Positions 5,136 to 61,667 of a stretch of 64,000 nucleotides of DNA are shown in pieces. The number at the start of each line of letters is the position of its first letter. The first letter of the stretch is position 1. The stretch is from NCBI RefSeq assembly GCF_905475395.1, contig NC_058342.1, positions 36,414,140-36,478,139 on the forward strand. Reading direction: 5' to 3'. The notes below the pieces were generated by a model. The model was not told the DNA's origin, made no database searches, and saw nothing but the letters and a program-made list of their open reading frames with translations. The DNA is from Chrysoperla carnea. Its lineage: Eukaryota > Arthropoda > Insecta > Neuroptera > Chrysopidae. Made by a program: the position numbers and the translations under genes.

Positions 5136-5365
5136 TTAAAAAAAAAAAATGGCCGTGTTAACTTTAAGTGCACTATTTATTGACTTTTATTTATGAAATA
5201 ATTAATAACAAATAATTTATTTTTAGGTTAAATAAATATTGACAAGATTAACAACTCTACGTGAATTGATTACCAAGAAAAATTATTCAAGAAAGTGAAA
5301 AAAAAAAACGTTACAAGCTTTATGAGGACTTAACTTCAAACAAAGCTCAATTTACATCAAACAAG

Positions 5366-7747
5366 ATGTATAAATTTATCATATTATCATTACTGATAAT
5401 AGTCTGTACCGGTGATAACACCGGTGACGTACAAATCAAATGTCCACGCGATTGTGTCTGCGAAGATACCACATCAACAGCCACATGTCGATTTATCGAT
5501 GAAAATTATCAACAATTCGGTGAAACAAATATTAAAACATTGGTCATTCGAGACAACCTCACCTACAAACCACGTATTCAGCTCACACCGAATATCTTTA
5601 AGAATATTGGATTGAAATACGCCCAAAAAATTGTCATCTCGAATGTGACAATCGATTCGATCGATGAAAACACATTCGCTGACTTGGAATATTTAACAAG
5701 TGTCGAATTACAACATGCAAACATTTCGAAGTCGAATATACACATGTTTAAAGAAGTTTTTAACACCAACACGACTAAACATTTAAAGGCAATCGATTTG
5801 AGTCATAATCGAATCGGAAATGAATTATTTAATTCGAATACCTGCGAGGAATTAATGTTACAGAATAATGAAATCGAAGTACTTGACGGGAAAACATTTA
5901 ACGGATTGTTAAATTTAATTTACATCAATTTAAAAAACAATCAAATCCAAAAAATCGATGTAATGACTTTTAAAAAGTTAATCAATCTCGAAGAAATCGA
6001 TTTATCGAACAATCATATCAAAACAATCCCCTTACTTCTATTCACAACAAACACGGAACTCAGTTACTTAAAACTGATTAATAATCCGTTAGCGACACCA
6101 ATCGAACAATCGATTATCAATTCCGAAAGTTTAGAAACATTAGACTTAAATAACAGCGATTTAACGGATATCAGTGAACATATGTTCATACAAATACCGA
6201 ATATAATCGATTTAAAATTACAATCGAACATGATTCGAACGATTCACGAGAATGCATTTAAACATTTAACGGAATTATACGATTTAGATTTATCGGATAA
6301 TCAAATACAAGAATTACCGGAAAATCTTTTTAAATATAACCTCGAATTAAAGTTGTTAAACGTTAGTAATAATTACGATTTAACGAATTTACCATCAAAC
6401 GGTTTTAACATACTTGTTGGGTACACATTCGATATAAACACGTTCGATGTATCGTTTTGTTCGATTCAAAACTTAACAAGTCGAGTTTTCGATCGTATGG
6501 CTGCGTTAACTGATTTATATTTAAACGATAACAACTTAAGTCATTTACCCGAGGATATTTTCGAACACTTATACTCCTTGAAATATATCAACTTGGCAAA
6601 TAATAAACTTTCTACATTACCGACCAATCTATTCAGGAATAATTTTAATTTGAATCATTTAAATTTATCGAATAATCGAAATATTAAGGTCGTTACGTTA
6701 AATATGTTTAATTCGTTACAAAATTTAATTATTTTGGATTTAAGTCAATGTGGTTTGATTAGCACAATCGAGTGGACCTCCCCCGCCGGACATGATCGAT
6801 TGGTTAGCCTTAAATATTTAAACATCTCGAATAATTACATAACCGAATTAGATGGGGACAAGTTCATGGATTATATTCCAAATGTAATCAATATCGATTT
6901 AACTGGTAATCAATTGCAGTGTAATCAACAATTTACATCGTTCCTACAATCGTTAATCGCGCATAATGTACAAGTTGAGATTAATCGTGAACAATCTGAG
7001 GACTTGGATAAGAAATCACGATGGAATTTACTTACAAAAACTGTTTGTAAAGATGAACCAATCGTTCAACAAATTCCAAGCACAAATCAAACGAAAATCG
7101 ATAATAAAATCGATAACGATAACGATAACAATGATGATATCGATGATGAATACTATGATGGTGATTTCTCTGAAGATGAAGATGAGGAAGATGAAAGTAA
7201 CGATACGTATGATGAGACGATTTCATCATCCACGATTGCCTCGAACGATGATTTCGATTCAGATGAAGATGACGAAGAAGAAGATGAAATTTTACTCGAT
7301 AGTTATTATTTAAATAAAGATTATAGCAATTACACGAAAGTCTTAATGTTTTTAGTTGGTGCGATAACATCCGCCGCGATTGTATTCCTTTTATCGTGGT
7401 GTTCAATCGTTTTATATCGACGTCGATTGGCGAACAATAAGTACAATCAAAACATCAATAATATTATAACGAAAACGTTACAACAACCGTACAACAATGG
7501 AAGTGATTCGTTTAAAACGAAGAAAGATTGTGGTCTGGTTTATAAACAATTGTCTGAAGAATTAACTCCACAACAATCGAACACAACAAATTCAACTTCA
7601 ATGATTAATCCATCAGTGATATTAACACGATTATATTCGATAATCAATCATCAAAATGCGTCTGCGACTTCACGTTATCAACAGATTCAACCAGAAGATC
7701 AACAATTACATCAATCAACAATTACAATTACAACAATTAATCAATAA
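5366..7747 (+). CDS. Leucine-rich-repeat single-pass membrane protein
   Basis: Single-exon 793-residue protein. It has an N-terminal signal peptide (residues 1-16, rich in I/L). A cysteine cap of LRRNT type follows (CPRDCVCEDTTSTATC, about 26-41), then a long array of leucine-rich repeats of the 'L..L.L..N.I..I....F..L' type to about 530, and a short C-terminal cap with Cys. A strongly acidic Asp/Glu/Asn stalk spans about 575-645. A transmembrane helix at about 657-683 is followed by RRR, and a ~110-residue cytoplasmic tail is rich in Asn, Gln, Ser and Thr. There is no TIR or Ig domain, so it is neither Toll nor Kekkon. Extracellular LRR proteins of this shape act in cell adhesion and neuronal targeting in insects, but I cannot name an orthologue. 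The ATG at 5366 opens directly into the signal peptide. An AATAAA overlaps the stop codon. Confidence 0.9.
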   Translation: MYKFIILSLLIIVCTGDNTGDVQIKCPRDCVCEDTTSTATCRFIDENYQQFGETNIKTLVIRDNLTYKPRIQLTPNIFKNIGLKYAQKIVISNVTIDSIDENTFADLEYLTSVELQHANISKSNIHMFKEVFNTNTTKHLKAIDLSHNRIGNELFNSNTCEELMLQNNEIEVLDGKTFNGLLNLIYINLKNNQIQKIDVMTFKKLINLEEIDLSNNHIKTIPLLLFTTNTELSYLKLINNPLATPIEQSIINSESLETLDLNNSDLTDISEHMFIQIPNIIDLKLQSNMIRTIHENAFKHLTELYDLDLSDNQIQELPENLFKYNLELKLLNVSNNYDLTNLPSNGFNILVGYTFDINTFDVSFCSIQNLTSRVFDRMAALTDLYLNDNNLSHLPEDIFEHLYSLKYINLANNKLSTLPTNLFRNNFNLNHLNLSNNRNIKVVTLNMFNSLQNLIILDLSQCGLISTIEWTSPAGHDRLVSLKYLNISNNYITELDGDKFMDYIPNVINIDLTGNQLQCNQQFTSFLQSLIAHNVQVEINREQSEDLDKKSRWNLLTKTVCKDEPIVQQIPSTNQTKIDNKIDNDNDNNDDIDDEYYDGDFSEDEDEEDESNDTYDETISSSTIASNDDFDSDEDDEEEDEILLDSYYLNKDYSNYTKVLMFLVGAITSAAIVFLLSWCSIVLYRRRLANNKYNQNINNIITKTLQQPYNNGSDSFKTKKDCGLVYKQLSEELTPQQSNTTNSTSMINPSVILTRLYSIINHQNASATSRYQQIQPEDQQLHQSTITITTINQ

Positions 7748-14841: not shown

Positions 14842-17800
14842 ATGAAAATGAGCCGTTTTAAAATGTTTTCTGTGTGTTTGTTCTATTTGTTTCTAATACA
14901 GAATATTATTGCTACGGACACTGCAACAAGTCAATTTGAAAATGCGATGGATTTGAATCAAACGTCAGGATATTGTTCCCCATACATGGGAAAGGTGATT
15001 AATTATTATCCAATTATTTTTTTTTTTTAAAATTGTAAATAGGAGCGGCTTTTAAAGTCAAACAAGGATGTTGGGTCCTGGGTCCTACGTATAGTTTTGG
15101 CATTTTGATGCTGGTAAATTAACAACGGTATTATTATATAAGACTTGATATTATACAATTTTCACCTTCTTACTTAGTTTTTAAAGTTAGAAATCCGGTT
15201 AATTTGAGAATTAATTGAGTAATTAATAAAAATCTGGCCAAAATATAAGGATTTAAAGCGATTCCATACCACAATACTCGAACAATTGTTAAATTAACCC
15301 GATTTTCGATCGACATTATCGTATGTAATGAAATTTATCGAAATTGGAAACCAAAATTTAGCCTAAATAGCCGAGCGGTCTAAGGCGTTTGTCTTTGGCT
15401 GTTTGTTCATTTAGACTTAGGTTGCAGGTTCGAATCCAGGCAGCGGGAGTGTGAACAATTATGATTAATGAGGGCGGTAGAATTGATCCACATTGTCGTC
15501 GATAGGATAAGAACGAAGTAACCGACTCCACCCACATCAAAATATAATTCTAAATATGTTTGTAATTAAATAAATAAAGATTAACAAATAATGATGTGGA
15601 TTGCCTTTGTTATAGGCGTCCATGTCAGAGAAACGGAGGCTAAACCCCATTATTATTTCGGAAATAAATCGTAATCAATATCTATTTTATTAGCTAAAGT
15701 TTTTTGGTCGGCCTCTATACTTCATCCGTCCAGAAATCTACCAAACGCTATCAATTTTTCACGCTCGACGCCGACGCTAACGCTAAGTTTGATTGCTATA
15801 GAGCTACATTTGTGAGATGTTTTAGATGAATTAAGTAAATTTCACTTTTAATTAAATCAAATAATTGTTTTAGGTGTGTCGTAATTATGTAAATAGCGTA
15901 CGATTCGTATGGTTTAACTTAACGAAAGATACGACTGGCGGCTGGTTAAATGAACAAATAACGGCTGGTTTATGGACCGAATTAATTGAAACATTAAAAG
16001 AGCCATGTCGTAGTGCTGCCGAAAAACTTTTATGTACATATGCTTTTCCACATTGTATTATCAAGGAGGGCGGTTATTCCAGAGCGTTGCCATTGTGTTA
16101 CGAGGATTGTATTGCAGTTAAACAACAGTTCTGTGCGAACGAGTGGGCTGTCATCGAGGACAACAAACAGCGAGGTATCTTTTTTAAATCGCGCGGTCAT
16201 TTCCAACTGCCCGATTGTGATAGTTTACCTCGTTTTAATCCAAACAGTAGTGTGTCTACCTGTTCGCATGCTAAGCTCACTGAAATGAAATTGGATGAAG
16301 TCACTGGTAAGTCACTAATTAGCACTTTAGCAGTTATTGATTGCTAACTAATATAGCATAGTTTACCTACGCTATTCTACTCTACTCTACGAGTCTACTA
16401 CTTCATTCCCTTCCAAAGTAGGCAGAGGGTCTCGGTAGTGGTACTTTAGACTATAGAGTAGAAATAGAAGTAGGGGTGGGATTGTAATTGACATGATAAA
16501 AAATGAGTTTTGAACTTTGCAGAGGATTGTGTTCGAGATCGTGGACGATTCTATCAAGGTAAAGTGAACGTGACTAAATATAAACTACCATGCCAAAAGT
16601 GGGATTCACAAGAACCGCATTCACATGATCGTCCTCCAGCTGTTTTCCCAGAAGTACAAAATGCTGAGAACTATTGTCGTAACGCGGGCGGGGAAGAGCC
16701 AGTCCCATGGTGCTACACCATGGATCCAAATGTACGTTGGCAACACTGTGACATACCGCTTTGTGATAATATTACGAGCGCGGATTCAACGGGTACTGAA
16801 TTTCGGGACATTGTACACATGGAAACCTTGTTCACACCTGCGTTTGTGATGGCACTAGCTGGAGCTGGATTCGCTTTCATCGTTATTACGTTGTTATTAG
16901 CGTTAATGTGCCATCGATTGTACAAACATCGTTTAGCCGCAGGTTATGGACCAACGGCAACAAATGATAACCATCGACAAGTGAATATCGATCTCGATAA
17001 GCTACCTAGCAACATGGCCTATCATAGTACAGGAGCTCAACTGAATCCACTGTTAGAGAAACTTGAATTTCCACGGAATAATATCATTTATATACGGGAT
17101 CTGGGTCAGGGCGCGTTTGGACGAGTTTTCCAAGCAAAAGCACCTGGATTAATAGCTGGTGAAGAATTCACTCTAGTTGCGGTGAAAATGTTAAAAGATG
17201 AAGCGTCCCAAGACTTGCAAGTTGACTTTGAACGTGAAGCCTGTCTATTAGCTGAATTCGATCATCCTAATATTGTTAAGTTGCTAGGCGTGTGTGCCGT
17301 GGGACGTCCCATGTGTTTGTTGTTCGAGTACATGGGTCGTGGTGATTTGAATGAGTTCTTAAGGACTTGTTCGCCAAATAATTACGTATTACGTGCTGGA
17401 GGGATGGTGCTAAACGATGGCTCAGATGTGTGGCGTGATGTTCGATTGACACATCGCGATCAATTGAGTGTTGCTCAACAAGTGGCTGCTGGAATGGTTT
17501 ACTTATCAGATCGAAAATTTGTTCATAGGGATTTGGCAACCAGAAATTGTTTGATTGATGACAACATGATTGTTAAAATTGCTGATTTTGGATTATCCCA
17601 AAAAATTTATTTACAGGTAAATTACAGCTCTTTTTCATTTCTTCTTCCAGCAAAATCCGAATATTTAGAAGAATCAGAAGAATCGATTAATGTAATAGAA
17701 AGTTGTGTTCTTGATTCTTGAGCCGAGTTCAAACGCTGGCCTCCGGTATTGGAATTCACTGCTCTGCCACTAGGCCACTGTACCTCTGTCGAAATATTAT

Positions 17801-18197
17801 AAATATAGCTAGAAATATTAGGATATTTTAAGTAAATTTTTTTGTTTTTTAGGATTACTATAAAGGAGATGAACAGGATGCGATACCAGTTCGTTGGATG
17901 CCCTTGGAAAGTATTTTATACAACAAGTATACAATCGAATCAGACGTTTGGGCTTTTGCCGTATGTTTATGGGAGATATTCTCATTTGCACTTCAACCAT
18001 ACTATGGGATGACGCACGAAGAGGTTGTGAAGTTCGTGAAGGAAGGCAACATGTTAGCGTGTCCAGACAACACACCATCATCCGTCTACAAGTTAATGCA
18101 AAGATGTTGGGCGCACAAACCATCTGATCGTCCCAGTTTCCGTACAATTTACGCTACACTCGAAGAAATTATAGATGATTTAGAGAGGACTACATAG
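14842..18197 (+). CDS. Nrk: Receptor tyrosine kinase with Frizzled CRD and kringle (Nrk/Ror2)
   Basis: Four exons (14842-14994, 15874-16306, 16523-17616, 17853-18197) give 674 residues. Order: signal peptide (1-26); cysteine-rich Frizzled-type domain (about 45-185); kringle with six Cys (198-276); transmembrane helix (about 299-325); tyrosine kinase (about 380-670). Kinase landmarks are all present: GQGAFG (390-395), VAVK with Lys417, HRDLATRN (Asp532), DFG (550-552), and an activation loop with paired Tyr562-Tyr563 in DYYKGDE, followed by PVRWMPLES. No Ig domain precedes the CRD, as in Drosophila Nrk and unlike vertebrate Ror. The activation loop is MuSK-like. I chose ATG 14842 because it leads straight into the signal peptide; the frame opens earlier only at a GTG. 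A tRNA-derived SINE sits in each of introns 1 and 3. An in-frame open extension follows the TAG stop. Confidence 0.95.
15355..15605 (+). mobile_element. tRNA-derived SINE, family A (copy 2)
   Basis: A box TAGCCGAGCGGTCTAAGGCG near 15367, B box GGTTCGAATCC near 15427, then the family body ending CCACCCACATCAAAATA. The tail contains AATAAATAAAGATTAACAAA. It is the same element as 4925-5135 in reverse. It lies in intron 1 of Nrk in the sense direction. Confidence 0.88.
17715..17790 (-). mobile_element. tRNA-derived SINE head, family C (fragment)
   Basis: On the minus strand, CAGTGGCCTAGTGGCAGAGC forms an A-box-like start. About 40 bases on, CAGCGTTTGAACTCGG resembles a B box. The two boxes are spaced as in a tRNA, but the arms do not fold into a full tRNA, so a SINE head is the better reading. 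It lies in intron 3 of Nrk. No second copy was found in the window. Confidence 0.5.
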
Positions 18198-25469: not shown

Positions 25470-28636
<3,167 letters not shown>

Positions 28637-30924: not shown

Positions 30925-33900
30925 ATGAAATTTTTATCAGAAACATTCGTAAATCATTGCTATAAGCGAAATGCAAAATCTGGCTTACGTATCAATAAAG
31001 TAAGAGCAATTTGAACTAATTCTACCTAATTTTAAACCAATTTTAAAATCTCAAATCCTTATTTTTAGCGAATAGTTCAAGGATACCTTCGTCGTGATAT
31101 ACATTGTGGAATTGTGAAATGTAAATTATGTACAAATACGAGCAACACAAATGAACCGGTTTTGGATCAAAATCCAAAAACCGATAGTACGGTGTATTCG
31201 AATTACTATATTGTACCGGATACAGAAACACTTTTCAATCAAGTAAGCATTCATTCATTCATTCGTATCCGATTTTGTGGGTGGGTTGCTGATTTTGGAT
31301 CGTTTTGTAACTAAAATTTGTTTTGATCGGTTTTAGATTGATATTTTTGAAGATGAATCCGTGGAAAATGTTATTATTTGTATGTCCGTTTTAAAATTAT
31401 TACAGTCACGCAGTAGTGTCATTTATAAACGAATTTTGGATGTAGCGGCAAATGTTAATCGAAAATTTTATATTTACGATGATCAACATTCTGAGTAAGT
31501 TCTAAAATATCATAAAATACCTTCATAATCCTCGTTTAGCACCCTGTTTCCTTTACAAACGTATTTGAAAAGAGCTGTGTGTTTGTACAATCTTGTACCC
31601 TTCGAACACTTTGATCCGAATCGAGTCTTTAGTGAGTGCTCGACACTTGACTGTTTAAGTTGGATTAAATTGATTGATTGATTGATTCTAGGTTCACATA
31701 CGTTGAGCGATCGTTATCAAAATTGAAAGCAGATCATAAAAAGTTACTTCTAAAATCCACTTTAAGTTTTTATGTACAGCATGTTCAAGCAACATCAAAA
31801 TCAACATGCTTTGTTGTTTTAACGCGAGATGAGGAATTGGAAAATGCGTTTACTGAAAATAAAGATCGTATACATTTTTGTAAAGGTATGCTTCTGTTTT
31901 TGGGATCTGTATCTGATTCTAAATCAGCAATTTAATTTTAATATTTATTTTTTCTAGTTGAAGATTACATTCAAACGTTGAACGCATCGAAAGGCGTTTT
32001 GGAAATAAAGTTACGTGTTAAAGATGATCAAGCTAAACGGCCAGAAAATTTCCGTGAAATATTCCCACCGTATTTAACAAATGAACAACTTTTTACAGGA
32101 ATAAGACGTGGTGATGTATTACAGGGAACTTTTCGTGTCAGTGGCCATAATTTTTTGGAAGGATATGTTACGGTTGATTCATTTGATAAACCAGTAAGTT
32201 CACCAGTAATTAGATTCAAGATTAATAGTAGGGTGGGGGATCCGTCTTCGAAAACTATTCGAGACACTTGCCTACAGTGATGATGAATGGGGGAAAAGAA
32301 CTAGCCCTGATTGGTTGTATAAAGTTTAATTGATTTGTTGCAGATTTTAATTAGCGGTTACAAACGATTAAATCGTGCTATCGATGGTGATGTTGTTGGC
32401 TTAAAGTTGCTACCTAAAGAAGAATGGCTAAGACCAGTTGATATCGTTGTTGAAGATGACGCTGATGCAACTTTAGAAGAACTTGAACAGAAAACATTGG
32501 AAGAGACCCAAAAGAACAAAGAAAAGTCAGATAAAGATTGTGTGGCAACTGGACAGATTGTTGGTATTATTCGTCGTAAACATGGCCAATGTTGTGGGAT
32601 CATAATGCGTAGTCAACGTTTTCATTCGTCCAGACATTTGTTTATACCAGCGGATCGTAAATATCCACGTGTTCGAATCGATACCAACAACATCGATAAT
32701 TTAGTTGGTAAAAAGTTAATAATCGCGTATGATGATTGGCCGCTACATTCAAGATATCCATTTGTTAGTAAATGTTAATTATTATTTATTACTAGCTTTT
32801 GTCCACGGCTTCGTTCGTGATGATGATTCATTTTAATATATTCCATAAATTATTCAATTAAAGAATCGTTGATTCATTTAGAGAACCAATTGGTAAATAA
32901 GGCGGCATTTGGTTCTTTCAATTTATAAATAAGCATTCCTTACATACCGCTTGTGAGAAGAATAATTAAAATTCTCTGTAAATATTGCAAATCACATGAA
33001 TTAAAAAAAAATATAGTAACATGTCAAGCATGCGAACGTTAGGGGTAGAATTTCGGAAAATGGTTTCTTATCGGATGCCTACGTCATAAAGAGAACACAC
33101 CCTCCTAGTTTCAAGTCTCTACGATCATCAGTTTAGGCTGTGCCTTGATCCGTCAGTCATTCAGGACAAAGCATTCTATATGTATAGATTTATTACTTGA
33201 ACTGCATGCAACTAAACAACATTCAGAATTCAGTAGTGAGTCAGAGATAGTTAAACAATTAATTAACGCTTGTTCTTTATTTTTAGGGTCACTTTGTTCG
33301 GATTATTGGTGAAGCGGGAGATAAAAATGTTGAAAATGAAGTACTTTTATTGGAGCATGATGTGCCTTATGCAAGCTTTTCACAAAGTGTGCTTAGAGAT
33401 TTACCAGCAGTTCCTTGGATTATCACAGATGAGGTAAGGAGAGCTTTCAATTTTAATCAATTCAAAATTCCCACAAATTAAGAAAAAGGAAGTAAAATAA
33501 TTGTAACTTGGTTACAGGATCGTGCTAAACGTGTTGATCTGCGTGATTTAAATATATGTTCCGTGGATCCACCAGGCTGTACAGATATCGACGACGCTTT
33601 GCATTGCTTTAAGAATCCAGACGGAACATTTAACGTGGGTGTACATATAGCTGACGTATCACATTTCGTGCGTCCAAATACCGCCATCGATGCTGAAGCA
33701 AAGAATCGTGGTACTACTGTTTATTTAGTGGACCGTCGTATCGATATGGTACCAGAATTATTGAGTTCCGATCTATGCTCGTTACGTGAAAACGTTGAAC
33801 GTTTTGCATTTTCATGCGTATGGGCTTTGGACAAAAATGCCAAAATTTTAAACACAACTTTTCATAAAAGTATCATCAAATCACGCAACTCGTTCACTTA

Positions 33901-35818
33901 CGAAGAAGCTCAACTACGAATCGACGATAAATCGAAACAAGACGACATCACAAAATCTCTACGCTATTTAAATCAACTAGCGAAAATTCTGAAACGTGAA
34001 CGATTAGCGAATGGTGCTTTGGTTTTATCATCTCCAGAAGTGAAGTTCCATGTGGACAGTGAAACCCACGATCCAATCGATGTTAATGTTAAAGTCATTT
34101 TGGATACAATGTCTATGATTGAGGAGTTCATGTTGTTGGCGAATATCTCTGTTGCCAAGAAAATTTATGAAGATTTCCCTGAATGTGCGGTCCTACGTCG
34201 ACATCCAGAACCACCTGTTGCTAATTTTGAACCATTAGTTAAGGCTGCACAAAGTCAAGTAAGTTTTTTTAGCCAAACCACACACACATCTGGTTTACCA
34301 GGGGAGTTTACCTAGAATTACAGAGGGATACATATCAGTATCTTCTCGAATAGTCAGATTATCCTTCTAATCGAGGATAATCTATGAATGCTACGAAAAA
34401 CTGAATCGCTTCGCATTGAATAACATAGTCTGGCTGATCTGGGTACTGGGGGGGCGGATTCTTTTGAATGAGAGAGATAATCTCGAACACCCCTTAATGT
34501 TATAAAATCGAAGTTCGATTTCAGTAAATTTTGAGTAATTTTTAGAGATGGTTAAAATAAAATAAAAATAATAATTTTAGGGTATTACGATAAAAATTGG
34601 AAGTGGTAAAGAACTGGCTGATTCATTGAACAGAGGAATAAAGAAGGACAATCCAGATTTTAATAATATGCTTCGAATTCTGGCTACTCGTTGCATGCAA
34701 CAAGCTGTTTACTTCTCTAGTGGAATGTTCAATTACAAAGAATACTTCCATTATGGTTTAGCGGTTGAAATTTATACACATTTTACGTCGCCAATTCGTC
34801 GTTACGCTGATATTATGGTACATCGATTACTAGCCGCCACAATTGGTGCAGATACTACATATCCTGAATTATTGGATAACAAGATCTCATCGAAAATTTG
34901 CGATAATTTAAATTTTCGTAATCGAATGGCTCAATATGCGGGTCGTGCTTCTGTTGCACTCAATACTCATGTAAGTTCAATTTTTATACCATGTATATAT
35001 GAAATATACATAGTATATTAAGTTTAGTCCCAAGTTTGTAACGCTTAAAATTAATGATGCTACGAAAAAAATTTTGGTAAAGGTGTTCATAAAATCATCT
35101 AATTAGTCCATTTCCGGTTGTTTGTCTGTCTGTCAATCAATATAAAGTGGGATAATTTGACCAAATCCAATTAAATCTTTTTATAATTTTTTAAAATTTC
35201 TTCGATTTTTAAATGAAACCTACTGCTTTTGTTAAGTTTATTTTGTTAAGTTGGTTTTCTGCAGTCAATAACAGAACACCCTGTATAGATGTTATTGACT
35301 TTTGAATCTTGAACATACAGTAGATGCGTACCATGTGTACTTTACTGACTACTTGACCTACTCGACCTACTTGAATTCATTATTATTAAATTAACGTTTT
35401 GTATTTGTAATTATAGCGTTTCTTCAAGAATAAAGTATTCGAAGAAGTTGGCAACATATTATTTGTGCGTAAGAATGCGCTACAAGTTCTTATCCCGAAA
35501 TTTGGTTTAGAAGGTACAGTTTTCCTAGAACCACCACCTGGTTATACCAACGATAATAAACGATATTATCCAAAATTCGAGTACAATGAAGAGTTACAAA
35601 TTCAAACAAGTTCGACTGGTATACAATTGAAGGCATTCGATAAAGTTGTTATTCGATTAGAAGTCGATTCCACGAATATTCAACGTGAAAAAATTGTATT
35701 TTCAATGATACAACCACTCGCCGTTGGATTGTTAAAAACTGAAGTGGATAAGGTGCTTCAAGAAACTACAAAAAACACAACTGCTACGGCTACGGCCACG
35801 GGTATGGATTGCGACTAA
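30925..35818 (+). CDS. Dis3: Exosome ribonuclease Dis3 (Rrp44)
   Basis: Ten exons (30925-30999, 31069-31242, 31337-31494, 31692-31885, 31958-32193, 32344-32763, 33287-33433, 33518-34258, 34581-34970, 35417-35818) give 978 residues, against 958 in human. Order: CR3 motif CGIVKCKLC (Cys38, 43, 46); PIN domain (about 70-205); two cold-shock domains; RNB domain starting about 470 with the metal site [13 protein letters not shown] (Asp485, 491, 493, 494); S1 domain near the end. It is the catalytic 3'-5' exonuclease of the RNA exosome. The CR3 and [10 protein letters not shown] motifs mark it as Dis3, not Dis3L. The PIN site keeps Asp76 and Asp182 but has Leu104 and Lys153 where human has Glu97 and Asp146. 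Introns 6 and 8 contain transposon fragments. AATAAA lies at 35869-35874. Confidence 0.96.
32790..32835 (+). mobile_element. Fragment of a widespread insect repeat in Dis3 intron 6
   Basis: 'actagcttttgtccacggct' followed by 'tcgttcgtg' matches a well-known insect non-LTR-type repeat end (tagcttttgcccgcggcttcg type). Only a short piece is recognisable. A related piece, 'tactagcagacccggt', is at 57714. Confidence 0.4.
34290..34510 (+). mobile_element. LINE fragment, RNase H region, in Dis3 intron 8
   Basis: The plus strand encodes [20 protein letters not shown] then LIWVLG, the same RNase H segment as at 11643 (SRIVYECFEELNHLALNN). It is broken and truncated, in the sense orientation to Dis3. 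Confidence 0.75.
34981..35145 (+). repeat. Dispersed repeat, copy 1 (Dis3 intron 9)
   Basis: 'tataccatgtatatatgaaa', then 'gtttagtcccaagtttgtaa', then 'aaaatcatctaattagtcca' and a GTCTGTCTGTC run. A second copy with the same order lies at 41811-41960 in primase intron 1. The layout resembles widespread insect transposon ends, but I cannot assign a family. Confidence 0.6.
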
Positions 35819-40359: not shown

Positions 40360-43306
40360 TTAAACATTTATGGATTTTTGTTCTTCTGTAACTTTTTCCG
40401 TTTTTGTGAAATATTTTCTGCTCTCTTTATAAAATTGATTTGGATGACTTATGTGTATCTCTGTGCCTCCATGTGTGTACTCAAAAAATTTACTACATGC
40501 AACTTGCGCATGTCCTTCTTTGGTTAAATTACTTATTTGAGTAATTTCTAAAAACCAAAAAAAGTTAAAAAAATTTAGATCTTTTATACCGTGTTTCTTG
40601 ATATACCTTCATTACTGATTCCACAATGAGCTAATCTTCTCTCCAAGCATGGTATATCCCACTCTTTAAACGGACAACCATGAAATTCCCTACGATTGTG
40701 ATTTGCTGGAGGATAATTTTCGATTATGTCCATACAATTTGGTGGAGGAACATTGATTTTGCTTCCCTTTAAGCCATAATTATATTCAATGTAGTATCCA
40801 TATTCTTTTTGAAAGTGATCTTCAGTCATTATTTTAGTAAATTCATTCCTGGAATAAAAGGGAAAACGATTACAATTCAATGGAACATTATATCGATTAA
40901 GCAAGGCTTTTTTTGACGTCAAATCCCTTTCGCTGTTCCTAAATAGCTAACAATGGTTCATGGAGTAGTGGCCGGGGATGGTATACACCTCTTTCGGTAT
41001 CATAACGGACTCTATGATCTAAGTGTGTCCCACCCCAGGACAACCACTCTAATAATCTAATCTAACCTAACATTATATAGAAGATTAACGCAGTGAAATT
41101 GATTGGTCCTTGCTTTGGCGCTCCTACTACCGTAAATGATCAGATTCAGCCAGCAATTAACCTTCGAACGGACACTATTTGGGACGGGGGTATCTTACCT
41201 AAAAAGAGTCAAACAATCGTGTACAGTTAGACCAATTCCTTTCAAAAACAATTGAAGTAATTGACGTCCATTGTATTTAAGATGATGAAATCGTTGCATC
41301 ACATCAACTAAATTTCGTGAACACAATGGAAACGAAGTTTGTGCCACAGTGTCAAATGACTCTAAAATCTTTTTGGAATTATCTACAGTCGTTTTCGTGA
41401 CATAATTACTGTCATCGGAGATCATCTTGTTGCTGCTGTACCTTGTACGATCAATTATTTCTTGTAAACGTGGTTCGAAAAAATGTTTAAGATTATCGCA
41501 ATAGTACTGAAACAAATCAAAATAATTCAATCAATTTTAGCACCTAGAAATATGAATCACAACCCAAGTAACGCAATTAGTTCACAATTTTATAGATCCT
41601 TGCTCGCTTGAGGCGACTTGCTTGTCTCAAATCTACCAATTTAGTCGCAAAAATCATAAAAATTTATTTCAATCGACTATAAGACAAATATTTTTGCAAA
41701 ATAATTGCCTGAAATCGATCATTCATGCCAAGAATCGACTGAAATTAAACTAGATTTACGCAAATAAAAGATTAAGCATTTGCGCAAAATGATTAACTAT
41801 TTCTTACATTTTTTATACCCTGTATATATGTAATATATATCAAGGTATACTACGTTTAGTTCCAAGTTTGTAAATCTTAAAAATATTGATGCTAAAATCA
41901 TCTAATTAGTCCATTTCCCGTTGTCCGTCTGTCACCACGATAACTGAAAAACGAAAAGAAATATCATGATGAAATTTTTAAAGCGTGCTTAGGGCGTAAA
42001 AAGTGAGGTCGAGTTCGTAAATGAGCAACATAGGTCAATTTGGTTTACCCATGAAGGTGCAAATTAGGTCAAAACTTTAGTATCCATTTTTTCCAAAACT
42101 ATCAAGAGATAGTTAAAAATTTGCAGGTAGCTTATTATTACAGGTATTGTATATAATTTAAATTTATACGTTCCAGTTTGACCGAAATTTCCTTGTGTAT
42201 TTTCCGCCATTTTGAAAAAAGAGTTAAATTCAGTTTTTTCATAATAACTCGGTTCTCCGTTGAGATACGAAAATTTTTATGCAATACTTTTTTGTTGCTT
42301 TTCACACGATCTACAATTAAGGTCCTATACATTTTTGACCTATCGTCCATCGTTATTGAGATATCAATCGAAAAAAAATTTCAAATTTGTTATTTATTTT
42401 TTTCAGTTGTCCCGAGTTTTTCTAAGCGAGCGTACGTGTTTGAAAATTGGATGAAACCCTCGAGGATTTCTCGAGACAATTGCGACATTGAAAAATGAGA
42501 GATGTTGCTCAATTTTTTACAATTTTTGGGTTGGCAACGCTAAATACAATTACAGCTACTGAGTTGGTACTTACCAATAAACGGTTTGTTAAATAACCTA
42601 TAAAAATATTTTTGAAAACATAAACTGAAAGATAATGAGGCACGTAGACAAAGCCTCGTCTCACAAAACAATCCAAATTTTGAATCAATTCAGGTGCTGA
42701 TGTATAAGGAACTTTATAAAAATCAGTCGAATCAAAATTACTTGTAGTCAATCGATCCGTACAATTTAATAAATCGTCACGGTATTTACTCTTCTCGTCA
42801 TTCGAAATCAATTTTAACATTCGAACATTATTAATTCGAATAAATTCTCGAACACCTGCATCTGGTAAATTGTTAAATTTGACATGAAACATATCCGCTT
42901 CCAATCGAATTAAATAATTCCGTTTAGTTTCATTCGAACAACAAGCCAAAACTAGCATGTAATGTGATAGAAAATCGCGTCGACGTCGTTCGATATCATC
43001 TAGTGAAGTTTTGAAATCAGCATGATAGAATAATCGAATATAATCTTGAAGATGGTGCGTTGTTAACATATCGAAAATATGTTTATTCCAATCTTCTGAC
43101 ATGTATTCGAATCCTAGATCAGTTGCTTCTTTAATAATCATCATTACTTGTAATCGTTGTTCGGTGAATTCTTCAATTTCCTTTAAATTGAATATGCCAT
43201 CAGGTCGATTTTCAAAGAATGTTAAATCGTGCGGATATAATTTCAATAATTCTTCTGGTATATTATCATTTAATGATTGTTTTTTATGTATTTCAACCAA
43301 ATCCAT
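40360..43306 (-). CDS. Prim2: DNA primase large subunit (PRIM2)
   Basis: Four exons (43306-42575, 41506-41199, 40848-40607, 40547-40360) give 489 residues, against 509 in human. The protein is the regulatory subunit of the primase-polymerase alpha complex that starts DNA synthesis with RNA primers. The four cysteines that hold the 4Fe-4S cluster are all present: Cys306 (FPLCSRNL), Cys385 (PPPNCMDII), Cys405 (FHGCPFK) and Cys445 (VACSKFFE). Other family landmarks are RRRDFLSHYMLVLA in the N-terminal half, LFLKGIGLT and HPNQFYKES near the end. The protein lacks the long N-terminal lead and the C-terminal tail of human PRIM2. Intron 1 carries repeat pieces and intron 2 a LINE 3' end. Confidence 0.96.
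40935..41072 (+). mobile_element. LINE 3' end, in primase intron 2
   Basis: 'caatggttcatggagtagtg' then 'gccggggatgg', then 'taagtgtgtcccaccccagg', ending 'atctaacctaacatt'. It matches the terminal ~140 bp of the LINE copy at 50940-51355. It is antisense to the host gene. Confidence 0.8.
41811..41960 (+). repeat. Dispersed repeat, copy 2 (primase intron 1)
   Basis: Same order as 34981-35145: 'tataccctgtatatatg', 'gtttagttccaagtttgtaa', 'aaaatcatctaattagtcca', then a GTCCGTCTGTC run. Confidence 0.6.
42175..42500 (+). repeat. Dispersed repeat pair, copy 1
   Basis: It contains 'gatctacaattaaggtccta', 'tcgtccatcgttattgagat' and 'tctcgagacaattg'. The reverse complement of the same series occupies 59830-60185. 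The open frames inside are short and have no domain. It lies in primase intron 1; family unknown. Confidence 0.7.
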
Positions 43307-49734: not shown

Positions 49735-49918
49735 GCGTTTTAGACGACCCGTCTCGTGCGAACGAGTCCTCTGCCTCGTTTCTTTAACGCCAGAGTGACC
49801 CAGGACCCAGATCAGTTTGACAGTACAGTGTTATTCAGTGCCAGAAGACAATAAGTAGGTTAGGTTAGGTTAGAGTGGCTGTCCTGGGGTGGGACACACT
49901 TAGACCATAGGATCCTAG
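49735..49918 (-). mobile_element. LINE fragments (RNase H piece and 3' tail)
   Basis: On the minus strand 49830-49735 encodes LIWVLGHSGVK, as at 11643. 49918-49857 carries the LINE 3' end 'taagtgtgtcccaccccagg', then 'acagccactc' and (TAACC)n. The tail stops 18 bases before the ATG of the serpin gene, so it may lie in its leader or promoter. Confidence 0.75.
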
Positions 49919-49935: not shown

Positions 49936-52900
49936 ATGCGATTTAATTCTGAAATTTTGTTTCTAGTATTCTTGGTAACGATATGCAGTATCGTAAATTC
50001 TTCAGTACAAAGCACTAAATTTCGAACAAGAAATGGATCAGTCGATAAACAAAATGGAAGTACAACTCTCGATGAATACGAAGATGATTTTCTACCATTT
50101 GATGGACAACGGTACGATTCATTTGATTGGGCCCTATCGAAAGTGAGTATCAAAAATTCAAACCACACAAAAAATTGACATTTTCAAATGATGAACTTTT
50201 TTTAGAAACTTGCAGAATTAAATAGTGGCCAAAATATGATCGTTTCCCCGATTAGTGTTAAAATTCTATTGTCGTTGTTATTCGAAGGAGCAGCTGGTAA
50301 TACTTCAAAGGAGCTGAGTGAAGTGTTAGAGTTACCGTTCGAACGTAAAGCATCGCGTGAGCGAATGCAAAAAGTTATCAACTCGTTCCAAGCAAAACAT
50401 CCTGATTACGAGTTGTTAATGTCGACTCGTTTATTTTTGGATGGACATTACACGCCACGTCAAAGGTTCACAGCCATATTAGAAAATTTTTACATGACGC
50501 AAATACAAAAAATTGATTTTCGAACTCATCCAAGTTCGGCTACAAAATTAATCAATGATTGGATAACAGAGGCGACCAAAGGTCGAGTAGAATCGATCGT
50601 CACTGATGGTAAATATCAAGTCACACACACTTCTGAGAGACACTGTATCTGTATGAAATATTTGATAAAATTCTAAATTGTATTTTTCATTTTTAGATGA
50701 TATAAAAAATTCAGTTTTAATTTTGATGAATGCAATTTTCTTCAAAGGAAAATGGCGTTATGCTTTTCATCCAAATGATACCCATACTGGTAATTTTCAT
50801 ATTAATTCCAAACAAAAAGTTCCTGCCACTTACATGACAAACACTGCTTCATATTACTTCATTGAATCTGCTGAATTGGATGCAAAAGTTATCCGATTGC
50901 CATATCAAGTGAGAATTTTAGAAAGTTTGCCACAATGATACAGTACGAATAAGTCCCCTTCTTAAAGTTGTATCGCTTCCAAGGGCCTCTCTTTTGGGGC
51001 TTTCACAGGGCTCTGGCTGGGCGGCAAGCATGCTGAACGCTTAGGCCTATCAGTGTAGCACGACTACTGCAGGAGCTATCACAGTGGTGACAAGGAGGAG
51101 ACAATGTCTCATCTTCTCTGTCACTGCCCAGCTCTTGTCATGACCAGATGGACTTACTTGAGACTGTCTCTCTTTGACGACCTCTCCGACCTAAAATCGA
51201 CGTTAAAGTCCTCCTGCTGTTCTTAAACAGCTCCAAATGGTTCATGGAGTAGTGGCCGGGGATGGGCCAACCCATTTACGATATCACAACGGACCCAATG
51301 GTCTAAGTGTATCCCACCCCAGGGCAGCCACTCTAACCTAACCTGACCTAACAGTTTGCAACTAACGATACAATAAAGAAAAACTTATTTTTACTGTGCT
51401 GGCAAAAACCTCGAATTCATATATTTACAAGTTTAGAAAAATCCGATTTTTTTCCACAGGGTCATAAGTTCGCTATGTACATGTTCCTACCAAACTCCAA
51501 GAATGGATTACCCGATTTATTAAAACGTCTAACACCGAACTTATTCCATAAACAATTATGGCTTATGGACGAAGTGAAAGTTAAAGTTGTCATCCCAAAA
51601 TTAAAATACGAATCTACAGCACAATTAGGACCGATTTTGGAACAGGTAGAATTCTATAGTTCGTAAGATTTAGAATTTTTCAAAACATTCTTTTCGAAAT
51701 CGCTAATTCAACTTACAAATATTAAAGTTTCAGTCCCAGAAGATTGTATTCGTAAAATTTGGAATGAAAATGTTTATTTGCATGCCCCCATTGCTTGAAC
51801 TTTCAATCCCCCCTCCCGTAATTATTGAAGAAAGCTATCAAGAATTATCAGAATCCACAATTTTAGAAAGTTTATTGGAAAATAATTTCCATAAGAAAAG
51901 TGCGAGGTCCTACTATAAGGAATGTTTTGAAAATGTCCTAAATAATGAATTTTTGAACTTGATAATAAACGTTGGTAAATTTTCAGCTAGGTCTAGTAGA
52001 AATCTTCCAAAATACAGCAAGTTTACCAGGAATTGCACGTGGACAAAATGGTGGACAACCAAATTTAATTGTATCGGATGCCTTCCAAAAATCTGGTATT
52101 GATATTTATGAAGAAGGTAGTGAAGCGTTTAGTGCCACTTCAATCACCTTGGGCAATAAATTCAATTCGGCTGATCACATATTTAACGCGTCCCATCCAT
52201 TCTTGTTCTTAATCGAAGATGAACAAACTGGTGCAATTTTATACTTTGGCAAAGTTGAAAATCCAACGAGCAAAACTGGTGAAATTAAAGTTCCATGGCC
52301 AGCAGTTCCACCACCAAGTGCAGCATCTTTTAACCAACCTCAATCAGCGTCAGATGTTTCAACACCATTTTTAAATTCACCAGACGTGGCCAGTAATTTA
52401 CAAAATACTCAACGCGCAAATTATTTTGATGTTGAAATATTACAGGTATTACAATTTTAAGTCAGTTCAGGGCCCCACCAATACACCACCCAATGTGCAG
52501 GATAGTGTAGCAATTTGAGGGGAAATATAAAAAAAATATCTCCGTAACATTTACCATTTTATTTTAAGGCAATGGCACGAAATAAACCGGGTAATGTGTT
52601 AGTGTCACCATTAAGTGTGAAAACTGTGTTGGCAATGATATTAGAAGGATCTGCAGGAAATACAGCACGAGAATTACAATCGGCATTACGCTTTCCAGAA
52701 TCAGCCGAGGCCACCAGACTATACATGCAAAGTTTGGTTTCTGGATTAAATGTAAGTATATTATAAAAAGTGTTTTTTTACAGGTACAAATCTCTGAATT
52801 GGCAACACCCGGTAATCCCTAGCCTCTAGATCAAGGGGTCCTTTGTGCCTCCCTCTTACCCGTCCCTCTTACCCGTCTCCGGGTAAGAGATGCTGTTTAA

Positions 52901-54502
52901 GTAAATGAAGCTTATCAATTCTGTGCAGGCCAGGTGCCAAGCAGAAAGCTTGAAACTTTTTCACCGGGATTCCTCCCAGGATTGATGAATTCCAGGTTAT
53001 AGATCCAAACATTCTAAACCTGACGTCCTGCAGGTTTATGAAAGTGCAAACAGGCGTAGATTTATCTCAAATACAAAGTGGTTCAAAAAATTGTAAAGTT
53101 TTAACCATTCTGGAAGACTTTCTTTGAGAACAACTTGTTACCCGAAGGCGAGACGTCTCCCGGTAAGAAATGCTGTTTAAGTAAATGAAGCTTATCAATT
53201 CTGTGGAGGCCAGGTGCCAAGCAAAAAGCCCGAAACTTTCCCTCCCGGATTTCTCCCAGGAGTGATGAATTCCAGGTTTTAGATCCAAACATTCTAAACC
53301 TGACGTCCTGCAGGTTTATGCAAGTGCAAACAGGAGTAGATTCAGCTCAAAAAAAAGTTTTAACCATTCTGGAAGACCAGAATTATTTACTGACCCACAA
53401 GAAAAAGAGAAGTCGCAAGATTTGAGTATTTTTTAGCTAACAAAATGGTTATCTTTTACAGAATGTTAAAACAGCAGGCGTGGAAATCAATGTGGCGAAT
53501 GGAATATTCCATGCGAGTTCAATACCGCTGTATCCAACTTATAAACAATTGATTAAAAATTATTATCAATCTGAATTGCAACCGGTTAATTTCGCTGACA
53601 AAGTGAATTGTGCTCAAACGATTAATAATTGGGTAAAACAAATGACATCGAAAAAAATTGAGCAAATTGTGAAGCCAGGTAATTATTTAAAGCCTTTGAG
53701 GTGGCAACCCGAAAATTTAATGATGACTTCTAATTCGAATTCGAATTCTAACTTGTAGAACAATTGAATCCAGCAACTGTAATGGTTTTGGTAAACGCTA
53801 TATTCTTCAAAGGAAAATGGTTACATTCGTTTTCTAAACGTGATACTGTCGAACGAGCTTTCTATGTTACAGAAGATGAAAATTTATTTGTGGAAACAAT
53901 GCATATAACGGACACATATCGATTCGCTGAAATCCCTGAATTAGATTCGAAAGTTGTGGATTTACCTTATCAAGTGAGTCAAAACTTGGAGATCGAATGC
54001 AAACTAACTGAACCAGATCTGACCTTACCATTTTTAATTTTAGGGTGAAAAGTATGGCATGTTGCTGATTGTCCCCAACAAGAAAAATGGAATGAATCAA
54101 CTCCTAAGAGATTTACCCCACAAACCATTACCAGATATCTATCAATCGTTGTACGAAACGGAAGTAGAAATATCGCTACCGAAATTCAAAGTAGAATTCG
54201 AACAAGATATCACATCCGATTTACAATCAATGGGAATACATCAAGTTTTCACACCGGAAGCTGAATTAACTGGCATTGCACCGAATGAGAAAGGTTTGCA
54301 TGTGGATTCCGTCCACCATAAAGTCGTTATGGAAGTCAATGAGGAAGGAAGTATTGCGGCTGCGTCAACTGGATCAATGTTAATACCATTAATTGGTTCA
54401 ACAAATCCACAAATACGTGCGGATCATCCGTTCCTGTTATTTATTCATGATATTGCGCAAGGAAACGTGTTGTTTGCTGGAAAAATTGCAAGACCGAAAT
54501 AG
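49936..54502 (+). CDS. Secreted two-domain (tandem) serpin
   Basis: Nine exons (49936-50142, 50206-50608, 50697-50908, 51460-51645, 51987-52445, 52569-52751, 53462-53678, 53759-53973, 54044-54502) give 846 residues. Signal peptide 1-23, serpin domain 1 (about 63-428), a Pro/Ser/Gln/Asn-rich linker (about 429-478), and serpin domain 2 (about 480-846). Each domain has the helix B motif (MIVSPISVK; VLVSPLSVK), NAIFFKGKW and a reactive loop. Loop 1: EEGSEAFSATSITLGNKF, with Lys394-Phe395 as predicted scissile bond. Loop 2: EEGSIAAASTGSMLIPLI, with Leu810-Ile811. Both hinges look inhibitory, though loop 1 has a bulky Phe at P11. Exon 5 runs from domain 1 through the linker into helix A of domain 2 with no stop, so this is one protein. 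Such serpins trap extracellular serine proteases. Intron 3 holds a LINE piece, intron 6 a tandem duplication. Confidence 0.92.
50940..51355 (+). mobile_element. LINE 3' portion with zinc-knuckle C-terminus
   Basis: The plus strand encodes HAERLGLS, then DKEETMSHLLCHCPALV, then FDDLSDL, the Cys/His end of I/R1-superfamily LINE polyproteins. The 3' end 'taagtgtatcccaccccagg' and 'gcagccactctaacctaacc' follows. It lies in serpin intron 3, sense orientation. It is truncated at the 5' side and no longer fully open. Confidence 0.85.
52865..53385. repeat. Tandem duplication inside serpin intron 6
   Basis: 'taagagatgctgtttaagta' near 52884 recurs as 'taagaaatgctgtttaagta' near 53164. Nearly identical text follows, including 'ccaaacattctaaacctgac' in both. 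The unit is about 260-280 bp. It has no relation to serpin exons. Confidence 0.85.
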
Positions 54503-60185: not shown

Positions 60186-60573
60186 GGTACTCAATACCTA
60201 CTCTTTATAAAAGATGATGCGATTCTTGATTACGTTACGTTAGGAATGCAGTTTTTATTTAAATGAATCGGATGCGATTCAACAAGAGTTCATTGCGATG
60301 CGATTGCATATTATTTATTATCCAAAGCTGAATAAAATGTTTTGTTTTAGGTGTGGTCCAAGATAAATATTATTAATAAAATAATGATGAATAATTATAA
60401 AATTAATAAATAATTTGAATTTATAAAATATTTAATTTAAAATAAAATAAAATAAATAATTTGAAAACAATAGTTTTAAAACTAAACTAACAATACAATA
60501 GCAGCGACTGTTATCGAAATTCAAGCGAGCGCAGCGGAGAGCGTACAGTACAGTGCAGCATACACGAAACACG

Positions 60574-61090
60574 ATGAATATGAGCGAAGGTCAGCACGGT
60601 GAGCAGCAACATGCTAGTCCAAGCTCGACATTCACTGGACTGACTGGAGGTGGCTCTAGTCAAATCAAGAGCGAGACATACCAGCCGACAAATCGACTGG
60701 TCAGCGTCAGTGATTGCGAAGCCGGAGCCGGAGCCAGTGATTGTTACAATTGTAGTGTCCAACAGCAACAATTATTTGACGAAGACGCGGAAGACGACAT
60801 GGAAGCCACGGAACGTGAGTTAGCTGAAGATGCACAATGGAAACGTATCCAACAAAACACGTTCACACGTTGGGTTAACGAACATTTAAAAACAGTTGCG
60901 AAAAATATTGGAAGTTTAGAAACAGATTTAAGTGATGGTTTGAGACTGATTACATTAATTGAAGTGTTATCCGGTAAACGTTTACCAAAACACAACAAAC
61001 GACCCAATTTTCGATCGCAAAAATTGGAAAATGTGTCGGTTGCGCTTAATTATTTACAAGCAGATGAAGGAATTCGAATTGTAAACATTG
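60574..61090 (+). CDS. cher: Filamin, first coding exon (gene continues beyond window)
   Basis: The first 172 residues are visible. A Ser/Gly/Gln-rich lead (1-85) includes an acidic [18 protein letters not shown] stretch. The start of the first calponin-homology domain of the actin-binding region follows: [60 protein letters not shown]. This wording is characteristic of filamin (Drosophila cheerio), which crosslinks actin filaments and scaffolds membrane receptors. I chose ATG 60574; the frame opens slightly earlier only at GTG. The exon ends in phase 1 at 61090, before GTAAGT. No further filamin exon is visible before 64000, so the first intron exceeds 2.9 kb. Confidence 0.93.
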
Positions 61091-61667
61091 GTAAGTCACT
61101 GTTTTTATTTTTTATTATTAAATTTATAATAATTAATACCTCAAAGTTTTGACTGACTGATCAATTTGTTTTTAGCCAGTTTAATTCAAAATCAGAGGTA
61201 GAGGTTACATTAACAATAAACAACTTTGTTTGTTACTTTCATTGATAAGGTGATTCACTTCAAATAGGGTCTAAAGCTATAAATGACATCATTATTTTTA
61301 ATAAATAATCAGTAATTCTAAAAATGTTTGCAAAATTATTACATATTATTATTATAGAATTCTGAATTAGTTAGCCTTGAACATTTAAGATGTTTAAACA
61401 ATTGACGCGATTATTTATCTTAAAAATGAGTATCTAATACCTATGTTGAGAGAACACGGATCCACTTTCATTTTGTGTGTATGTTTTTTTTCAAACTTGT
61501 CTAGACTTTGCGAAAACAATTGAGTATATAAAAATCAATCCAAGTTGTTTATTTTTGATTCAAGTCATGTTAAATTGTTAGAATATACTTTTTTGGATGC
61601 GATTTGAATTGGAAATATAAAAAGACTCAAAATAAATATAAAATAGATTTTAAGTTTTGCGTTAGTT

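What the first reader, a model, noticed from the sequence alone, without database searches (positions are those of the whole stretch)
49936..54502. One gene encodes two full serpin domains, with intron positions repeated in both halves
Exon 5 reads without a stop from the end of serpin domain 1, through a Pro/Ser/Gln/Asn linker, into helix A of domain 2. Introns fall at matching places in both domains: before helix B (ALSK|KLAE and EILQ|AMAR, phase 0), in the middle (phase 1, VTD and KPE) and after PYQ (phase 0, PYQ|GHKF and PYQ|GEKY). That is direct evidence of duplication of a whole serpin unit inside one gene. Each half has one extra intron (LEQ|LGL in domain 1, GLN|NVK in domain 2). Most serpins are single-domain; double-headed forms are rare.
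Basis: partly seen in the sequence, partly recalled or inferred. Interest (0 to 1): 0.85.

Follow-up and report, generated by a model that had tools for sequence, protein, structure and literature searches.

The report
Two-headed lacewing serpin gene
A green lacewing gene encodes one secreted protein with two complete protease-inhibitor (serpin) heads, one of them resembling a conserved brake on insect immune cascades; it is a further example of a two-headed kind already known from a beetle and a wasp.

Summary
Nine exons (49936-54502) join in frame, with GT-AG borders, into an 846-aa, 95.0-kDa protein with two serpin domains. Domain 2's helix A lies in exon 5, so exon 6 cannot start a complete serpin. 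The genome matches Chrysoperla carnea.

Three introns coincide in column and phase, far beyond chance. But all five distinct intron positions recur in single-domain serpins of the same genome (one of them a column off). They look ancestral, so the 'extra' introns are probably retained ones; they show common descent, not duplication inside this gene. Domain 1 is nearer to mosquito SRPN2 (273 bits, 38.8% identity, support 100/99) than to domain 2 (206 bits); a D1+D2 pair is marginally rejected (p-AU 0.042).

Closest known: twin-domain serpins, Tenebrio SPN93 and Pteromalus PpSPI3. Here the P1 residues are Lys394 and Leu810. Likely mechanism (inferred): domain 1 traps a terminal trypsin-like clip protease, domain 2 a Leu-preferring initiator such as ModSP. 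Verdict: new member of a known kind.

The parts
49936..50142 (+). Exon 1: start codon, hydrophobic signal-like stretch, acidic N-terminal part, helix A of domain 1
   Evidence: signal peptide judged by eye only
50206..50608 (+). Exon 2 (domain 1)
50697..50908 (+). Exon 3 (domain 1, ends PYQ|)
51460..51645 (+). Exon 4 (domain 1, ends LEQ|)
51987..52445 (+). Exon 5: end of domain 1 with its reactive loop, linker, and helix A of domain 2
52110..52145 (+). Domain 1 hinge EEGSEAFSATSI (residues 378-389)
52158..52160 (+). Domain 1 P1 residue Lys394 (P1' Phe), in LGNK|FNS
   Evidence: aligns with VNKF of SRPN2
52266..52412 (+). Pro/Ser/Gln/Asn-rich linker, about residues 430-478 (borders approximate)
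52419..52445 (+). Helix A of domain 2 (NYFDVEILQ, residues 481-489), in exon 5
52569..52751 (+). Exon 6 (domain 2)
53462..53678 (+). Exon 7 (domain 2)
53759..53973 (+). Exon 8 (domain 2, ends PYQ|)
54044..54502 (+). Exon 9 (domain 2 to stop)
54341..54376 (+). Domain 2 hinge EEGSIAAASTGS (residues 794-805; Ile at P13)
54389..54391 (+). Domain 2 P1 residue Leu810 (P2 Pro, P1' Ile), in LIPL|IGS

Best explanation
The gene encodes a secreted twin-domain serpin of the SPN93 kind. Domain 1 belongs to the Spn27A / serpin-3 / SRPN2 lineage and presents Asn-Lys|Phe as bait; it should trap terminal trypsin-like clip proteases that activate Spatzle or prophenoloxidase. Domain 2 presents Pro-Leu|Ile-Gly and should trap a protease that cleaves after Leu, most likely the initiating modular protease (ModSP/MSP). 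One molecule would then brake the same cascade at its first and last steps. Shown: the anatomy, both hinges and predicted P1 residues, the lineage of domain 1. Inferred: secretion, inhibition, the target proteases. Origin (inferred): two serpin units of common ancestry joined long ago; the twin layout in lacewing, beetle and wasp suggests that it is old among holometabolous insects.
For: Gene model and splice sites; two PF00079 stretches. Domain 1: AgSRPN2 (PDB 3pzf and its mutants) leads the PDB list at 279.6 bits, the next different protein, a designed consensus serpin, has 190.3 (best 60 of 200 shown); reciprocal best hit in the set, 38.8% identity, 273 bits; clade support 100/99 among 17 rows. 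P1/P1' Lys/Phe as listed for Drosophila Spn27A (PMC2770083, passages). Apis serpin-3, given as orthologue of Spn27A, MsSerpin-3 and AgSRPN-2, has P1 Lys (PMC1761132, passages). The Pteromalus tree groups PpSPI3-1 with AmSRPN3 and TmSPN93-1 (PMC5691223, section 6), which ties the twin form to the Spn27A lineage. Domain 2: P1 Leu is also stated for PpSPI3-2. [quoted passage not shown] In Tenebrio SPN93 domain 1 complexes SPE and domain 2 another enzyme of the cascade (PMC5691223, section 10 part 1; PMC10629668, passages, for domain 1).
Against: No transcript, protein or activity data. Domain 2 has Ile at P13, where Glu is usual, and domain 1 has Phe at P11. Apis serpin-3 is listed with Lys|Asn, not Lys|Phe. 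PMC5691223 contradicts itself on P1 of PpSPI3-2 (Leu in one sentence, Lys for both domains in another), and names the target of SPN93 domain 2 as 'Spatzle activating enzyme', for which P1 Leu is not the obvious bait. Necrotic also inhibits the trypsin-like Grass, so P1 Leu does not fix the target. The sequences of SPN93, PpSPI3 and Necrotic were not at hand, so direct orthology is untested. Domain 2's place in the tree is unresolved.
Confidence: 0.72

Rival explanations
1. Duplication of a whole serpin unit inside this gene, with D1 and D2 each other's closest relatives.
For: Three shared intron positions and phases. D1 and D2 align at 32.4% identity, 206 bits, D1's best match after SRPN2. A clade D1+D2+SRPN2 is not rejected (p-AU 0.401), so an old duplication of this kind, with later loss of domain 2 on the mosquito side, stays possible.
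Against: D1 pairs with mosquito SRPN2 at 100/99; D1 and D2 held together is marginally rejected, p-AU 0.042. D2's best matches are a tick serpin and alaserpin, 213 bits each. All five intron positions recur in single-domain serpins, one of them a column off.
Confidence: 0.15
2. Two neighbouring serpin genes wrongly read as one.
For: No transcript evidence for the exon 5-6 join; intron 5 is only 123 bases; poly(A)-like words occur at 52155 (AATAAA) and 52284 (ATTAAA) inside exon 5 and at 52581 (AATAAA) inside exon 6.
Against: Helix A of domain 2 sits in exon 5 in the frame of domain 1; the open frame that holds exon 6 begins at 52548 and carries no helix A or signal-like stretch before MARNKPGN; exon 5 has no stop before its donor. 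No AATAAA or ATTAAA lies between 52285 and 52568. The same layout is published for a beetle and a wasp.
Confidence: 0.04
3. Same twin-domain protein, but domain 2 acts on another target (a chymotrypsin-like or elastase-like protease of pathogen, prey or gut), or has lost inhibition.
For: Ile at P13 in the domain 2 hinge; the best PDB matches of domain 2 are general arthropod and vertebrate serpins, no close relative (best 60 of 196 shown). Lacewing larvae deploy serpins in venom, though the gene named there is an alternatively spliced one (PMC12758981, section 11).
Against: The rest of the hinge (Gly P15, Ser P14, AAAS at P12-P9) fits inhibition (consensus recalled); P1 Leu is stated for the wasp counterpart too, which suggests a conserved target.
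Confidence: 0.3

Closest known systems
Tenebrio molitor SPN93 (twin-domain serpin; Jiang et al. 2011, J Biol Chem 286:35087; paper not held, seen only through citing papers)
   Same: Two complete tandem serpin domains in one protein of 93 against 95 kDa; domain 1 in the AmSRPN3 group by the Pteromalus tree
   Different: Sequence and gene structure not available here, so not aligned; targets of the lacewing protein unknown
Pteromalus puparum PpSPI3
   Same: Two intact serpin domains; P1 Lys in the first and, by one sentence of the paper, Leu in the second
   Different: Sequence and intron positions not seen; the paper is inconsistent on the second P1
Spn27A / Manduca serpin-3 / Anopheles SRPN2
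   Same: Domain 1: best and reciprocal best hit is SRPN2; Lys|Phe reactive site as in Spn27A
   Different: These are not described as two-domain in the passages seen; D. melanogaster Spn27A is listed with 0 introns, domain 1 here has four
Drosophila Necrotic (Spn43Ac)
   Same: P2 Pro and P1 Leu as in domain 2; inhibits ModSP
   Different: P1' Ser, not Ile; has an N-terminal polyglutamine extension; its phylogenetic relation to domain 2 was not tested

Membership tests
Serpin superfamily (PF00079) | Match of both halves to the family profile | tested here: met
   Two stretches, E 9.5e-197; best 480-845 over profile positions 3-370 of 370
Inhibitory serpins | Hinge with Gly P15, Thr/Ser P14, small residues P12-P9 (consensus recalled) | tested here: inconclusive
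   D1 EEGSEAFSAT (Phe at P11); D2 EEGSIAAAST (Ile at P13); the rest fits
Inhibitory serpins | Covalent complex with a protease | not testable with these tools
   Needs protein
SPN93-type twin-domain serpins | Two complete tandem serpin domains in one open frame behind one signal peptide | tested here: met
   signal peptide by eye, transcript not seen
SPN93-type twin-domain serpins | Each domain groups with its counterpart in SPN93 and PpSPI3 | not testable with these tools
   Those sequences are in no collection at hand; indirect link through AmSRPN3
Spn27A/serpin-3/SRPN2 lineage (domain 1 only) | Closest relative among available serpins is SRPN2, reciprocally and with support | tested here: met
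   273 bits, 38.8% identity, reciprocal best; 100/99 among 17 rows
Spn27A/serpin-3/SRPN2 lineage (domain 1 only) | Lys|Phe reactive site | tested here: met
   GNKF aligns with VNKF of SRPN2; K/F listed for Spn27A; Apis serpin-3 is listed as Lys|Asn
Necrotic (domain 2) | P2 Pro, P1 Leu, P1' Ser | tested here: not met
   P2 and P1 agree, P1' is Ile. Not filed as Necrotic
Necrotic (domain 2) | Phylogenetic grouping with Necrotic | not testable with these tools
   No Necrotic sequence at hand

The most novel reading that the evidence does not exclude
The twin form is the ancestral holometabolan state of the Spn27A gene. Flies and moths kept domain 1 alone (Spn27A, SRPN2, serpin-3), while the Leu-baited function of domain 2 against the initiating protease lives on there as a separate serpin such as Necrotic, perhaps itself a split-off domain 2 whose N-terminal extension recalls the old linker. 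The twin layout would then preserve a one-molecule brake on the first and last steps of one cascade.
Probability: 0.2. Interest if true: 0.55.

Novelty: new member of a known kind. Interest (0 to 1): 0.35.

Why it matters
It adds Neuroptera to the insects with a twin-domain serpin; the held papers found by my searches name the form only in Tenebrio and Pteromalus (8 of the 9 papers were opened; most subscription papers are not held). It ties the first head to a well-studied regulator of melanization and Toll, and gives a testable idea of why two different baits are kept on one molecule. It also shows that matching introns inside a tandem pair need an outgroup before they are read as internal duplication.

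Tried and rejected
Recent internal duplication as the sole reading: weakened by the tree, the AU test and the intron survey. Misjoined neighbours: rejected on exon 5. Gain of the single intron in each half: less likely than loss, since both positions recur elsewhere.

Dropped rows: L035 (a 28-residue match) was left out of the BLAST, tree and intron alignment; L044 (divergent, long extension) was in the BLAST but not in the tree or the intron alignment. Some aligner models hold doubtful introns: both of L037 and one of L032 fall inside a single open frame and are probably artefacts; they match no intron of the twin gene. L043 is a long branch and its model has no transcript support.

Led nowhere or went against me: I looked for clip proteases activated after Leu, as expected targets of the protease that domain 2 would block. 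Of the 15 PF12032 loci an activation site could be read in 9 (8 distinct genes: L045, L046 = L050, L047, L048, L049, L053, L055, L058), and 8 of 8 have Lys or Arg (one search had read the plus strand only). L051, L052, L054, L056, L057 and L059 gave no readable site. Of four PF18322 matches three loci were fetched; no site was readable in them. The Hemocyanin_N search listed 11 matches but no loci, so the prophenoloxidase cleavage site was not read. Structure prediction was not run.
Full report
Source. The window is G000:C6:36414140-36478139 of a 559,487,470-base genome in 337 contigs. The length of C1, 139,979,878, and the scaffold number equal those printed for Chrysoperla carnea inChrCarn1.1 (PMC10116181, first of two parts of the text). 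C6 (38,561,639 bases) would then be the X chromosome (38.62 Mb in the paper). Total, C3 and C6 lengths differ slightly from the paper (560,248,701; 94.41 Mb), so this may be another release.

The gene. Reading and joining exons gives nine exons and an 846-residue product, 95.0 kDa, pI 6.1, six Asn-X-Ser/Thr sites, with a hydrophobic stretch after the start (signal peptide by eye only). 8 of 8 introns are GT-AG, phases 0, 1, 0, 0, 0, 0, 1, 0. A spliced aligner written here recovered the same internal borders in both halves. Pfam finds two serpin stretches. The critical point is exon 5: it is open from the last strands of domain 1 through about 50 linker residues to NYFDVEILQ, helix A of domain 2. 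Exon 6 alone would give a serpin without helix A or signal peptide, and intron 5 carries an in-frame stop at 52458. Poly(A)-like words exist in exons 5 and 6 (52155, 52284, 52581), none between 52285 and 52568.

Introns. In a MAFFT alignment of both halves with SRPN2 and 12 other serpin models of the genome the halves share 30/0, 190/1 and 269/0 (column/phase). Under uniform placement on 1110 sites, at least 3 of 4 shared has a chance of 7e-8. Domain 1 also has 336/0, domain 2 has 117/0. But L033 has 30/0 and 336/0; L043 has 117/0, 269/0, 336/0 and 191/1, one column from 190/1; L034 and L036 have 336/0. So each of the five positions is seen in at least one single-domain serpin, 190/1 only with a one-column offset. 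Exact sharing of 3 or more of L043's 6 introns with the set of 5 has a chance of 9e-7 in the same model. The other 8 models share none of the five. This is the pattern of an ancestral serpin gene with differential loss, and it does not tell internal duplication from fusion of tandem genes. The models were made without transcripts; those of L037, and L032 in part, are doubtful.

Relations. Domain 1 against the PDB: SRPN2 of Anopheles at 279.6 bits, the next different protein (a designed consensus serpin) at 190.3 (best 60 of 200 shown). Domain 2: a tick serpin 212.8, alaserpin 211.6, SRPN2 192.5 (best 60 of 196 shown). In a BLAST among 18 sequences, the genome's serpins plus three PDB chains, domain 1 and SRPN2 are reciprocal best (273 bits, 38.8%), D1-D2 is 206 bits, and D2 scores 213, 213, 206, 200 and 200 against the tick serpin, alaserpin, D1, L033 and SRPN2. 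The 17-row tree has D1+SRPN2 at 100/99 and leaves D2 unresolved. Holding D1 and D2 together costs 23.4 log units, p-AU 0.042; holding D1, D2 and SRPN2 together costs 2.2, p-AU 0.401. So the halves parted before the lacewing and mosquito lines did, and an old common origin of D1/SRPN2 and D2 remains open. The first p-value is marginal and the sample small.

Reactive sites. Aligned on SRPN2, domain 1 has P1-P1' Lys394-Phe and domain 2 Leu810-Ile with P2 Pro. Spn27A is listed as K/F; Apis serpin-3 as Lys|Asn. PpSPI3 is given as Lys in the first and Leu in the second domain in one sentence, and as Lys for both in another. Necrotic has P2 Pro and P1 Leu and inhibits ModSP, which prefers P1 Leu, and also the trypsin-like Grass. 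These support, and do not prove, a terminal trypsin-like target for domain 1 and a Leu-preferring initiator for domain 2. From memory, not from a call: the abstract of the SPN93 paper also lists the modular protease among the targets of its second domain; the citing paper seen here names only the Spatzle activating enzyme.

A possible local partner. On the minus strand of the same window, 25470-28421, pieces of a serine protease gene are visible: trypsin matches in 26028-26405 and 25470-25637, a six-cysteine clip-like exon at 28143-28421 that Pfam does not recognise, a long Asn/Gln/Pro/Thr-rich linker, and an activation site read as [10 protein letters not shown] in 26541-26813. Its Leu|Ile site resembles the Leu|Ile bait of domain 2, as one would expect if both meet the same Leu-preferring protease. 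It is one case picked by eye and may be chance: in the PF12032 clip proteases the site is Lys or Arg in 8 of 8 genes where it could be read, out of 15 loci fetched.

Literature. Searches on twin-domain or two-domain serpins: 9 papers; 1; 1; 1, unrelated; 1, the drosophilid survey; 0. Of the 9 papers, 8 were opened: PMC5691223 describes PpSPI3 and SPN93, PMC10629668 and PMC10545863 mention SPN93, and five only cite the Tenebrio paper; PMC6447812 was not opened. The Tenebrio paper itself is not held. The lacewing venom paper (passages, section 11) describes an alternatively spliced serpin; whether the twin gene is among its venom genes was not seen. The library lacks most subscription papers, so absence there means little.

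Verdict. A real twin-domain serpin gene of a known kind, here in a lacewing.

Noticed in passing
window 25470-28421, minus strand: Pieces of a clip-type serine protease gene with a long Asn/Gln/Pro/Thr-rich linker and an activation site read as [10 protein letters not shown] (P1 Leu), about 21.5 kb from the twin serpin. The clip-like exon is by cysteine pattern only; Pfam does not match it.
   Followed up: partly
window 50930-51370 (intron 3) and 49856-49915: Intron 3 holds a repeat listed at 40 further places at 87-92% identity (40 of 3337 first-look candidates scored), reading like the 3' end of a non-LTR retrotransposon with an AACCT-like tail; 60 bases of it recur in reverse just upstream of the start codon at 91.7%.
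   Followed up: partly
window 52874-53079 and 53154-53358 (intron 6): A direct duplication of about 206 bases, 90.8% identical.
   Followed up: no
L044 1941-7051 (G000:C5, about 19.085-19.090 Mb): A serpin preceded, in the same open frame of 1331 codons, by roughly 1100 residues rich in Thr, Ser and Glu.
   Followed up: no
L041 (G000:C2, about 15.642-15.646 Mb): Two separate matches to the C-terminal part of the serpin profile (278-370, and 276-367 with one TAG inside), as expected for alternative reactive-loop exons.
   Followed up: no
window 5270-7747; 15874-18197; 33482-34315; 40584-40946 (-); 60502-61152: Neighbours by Pfam (the last kinase piece, 17853-18197, by eye): a leucine-rich-repeat protein, a Fz/Kringle receptor tyrosine kinase, an RNB exonuclease, DNA primase large subunit, and a calponin-homology exon.
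   Followed up: no
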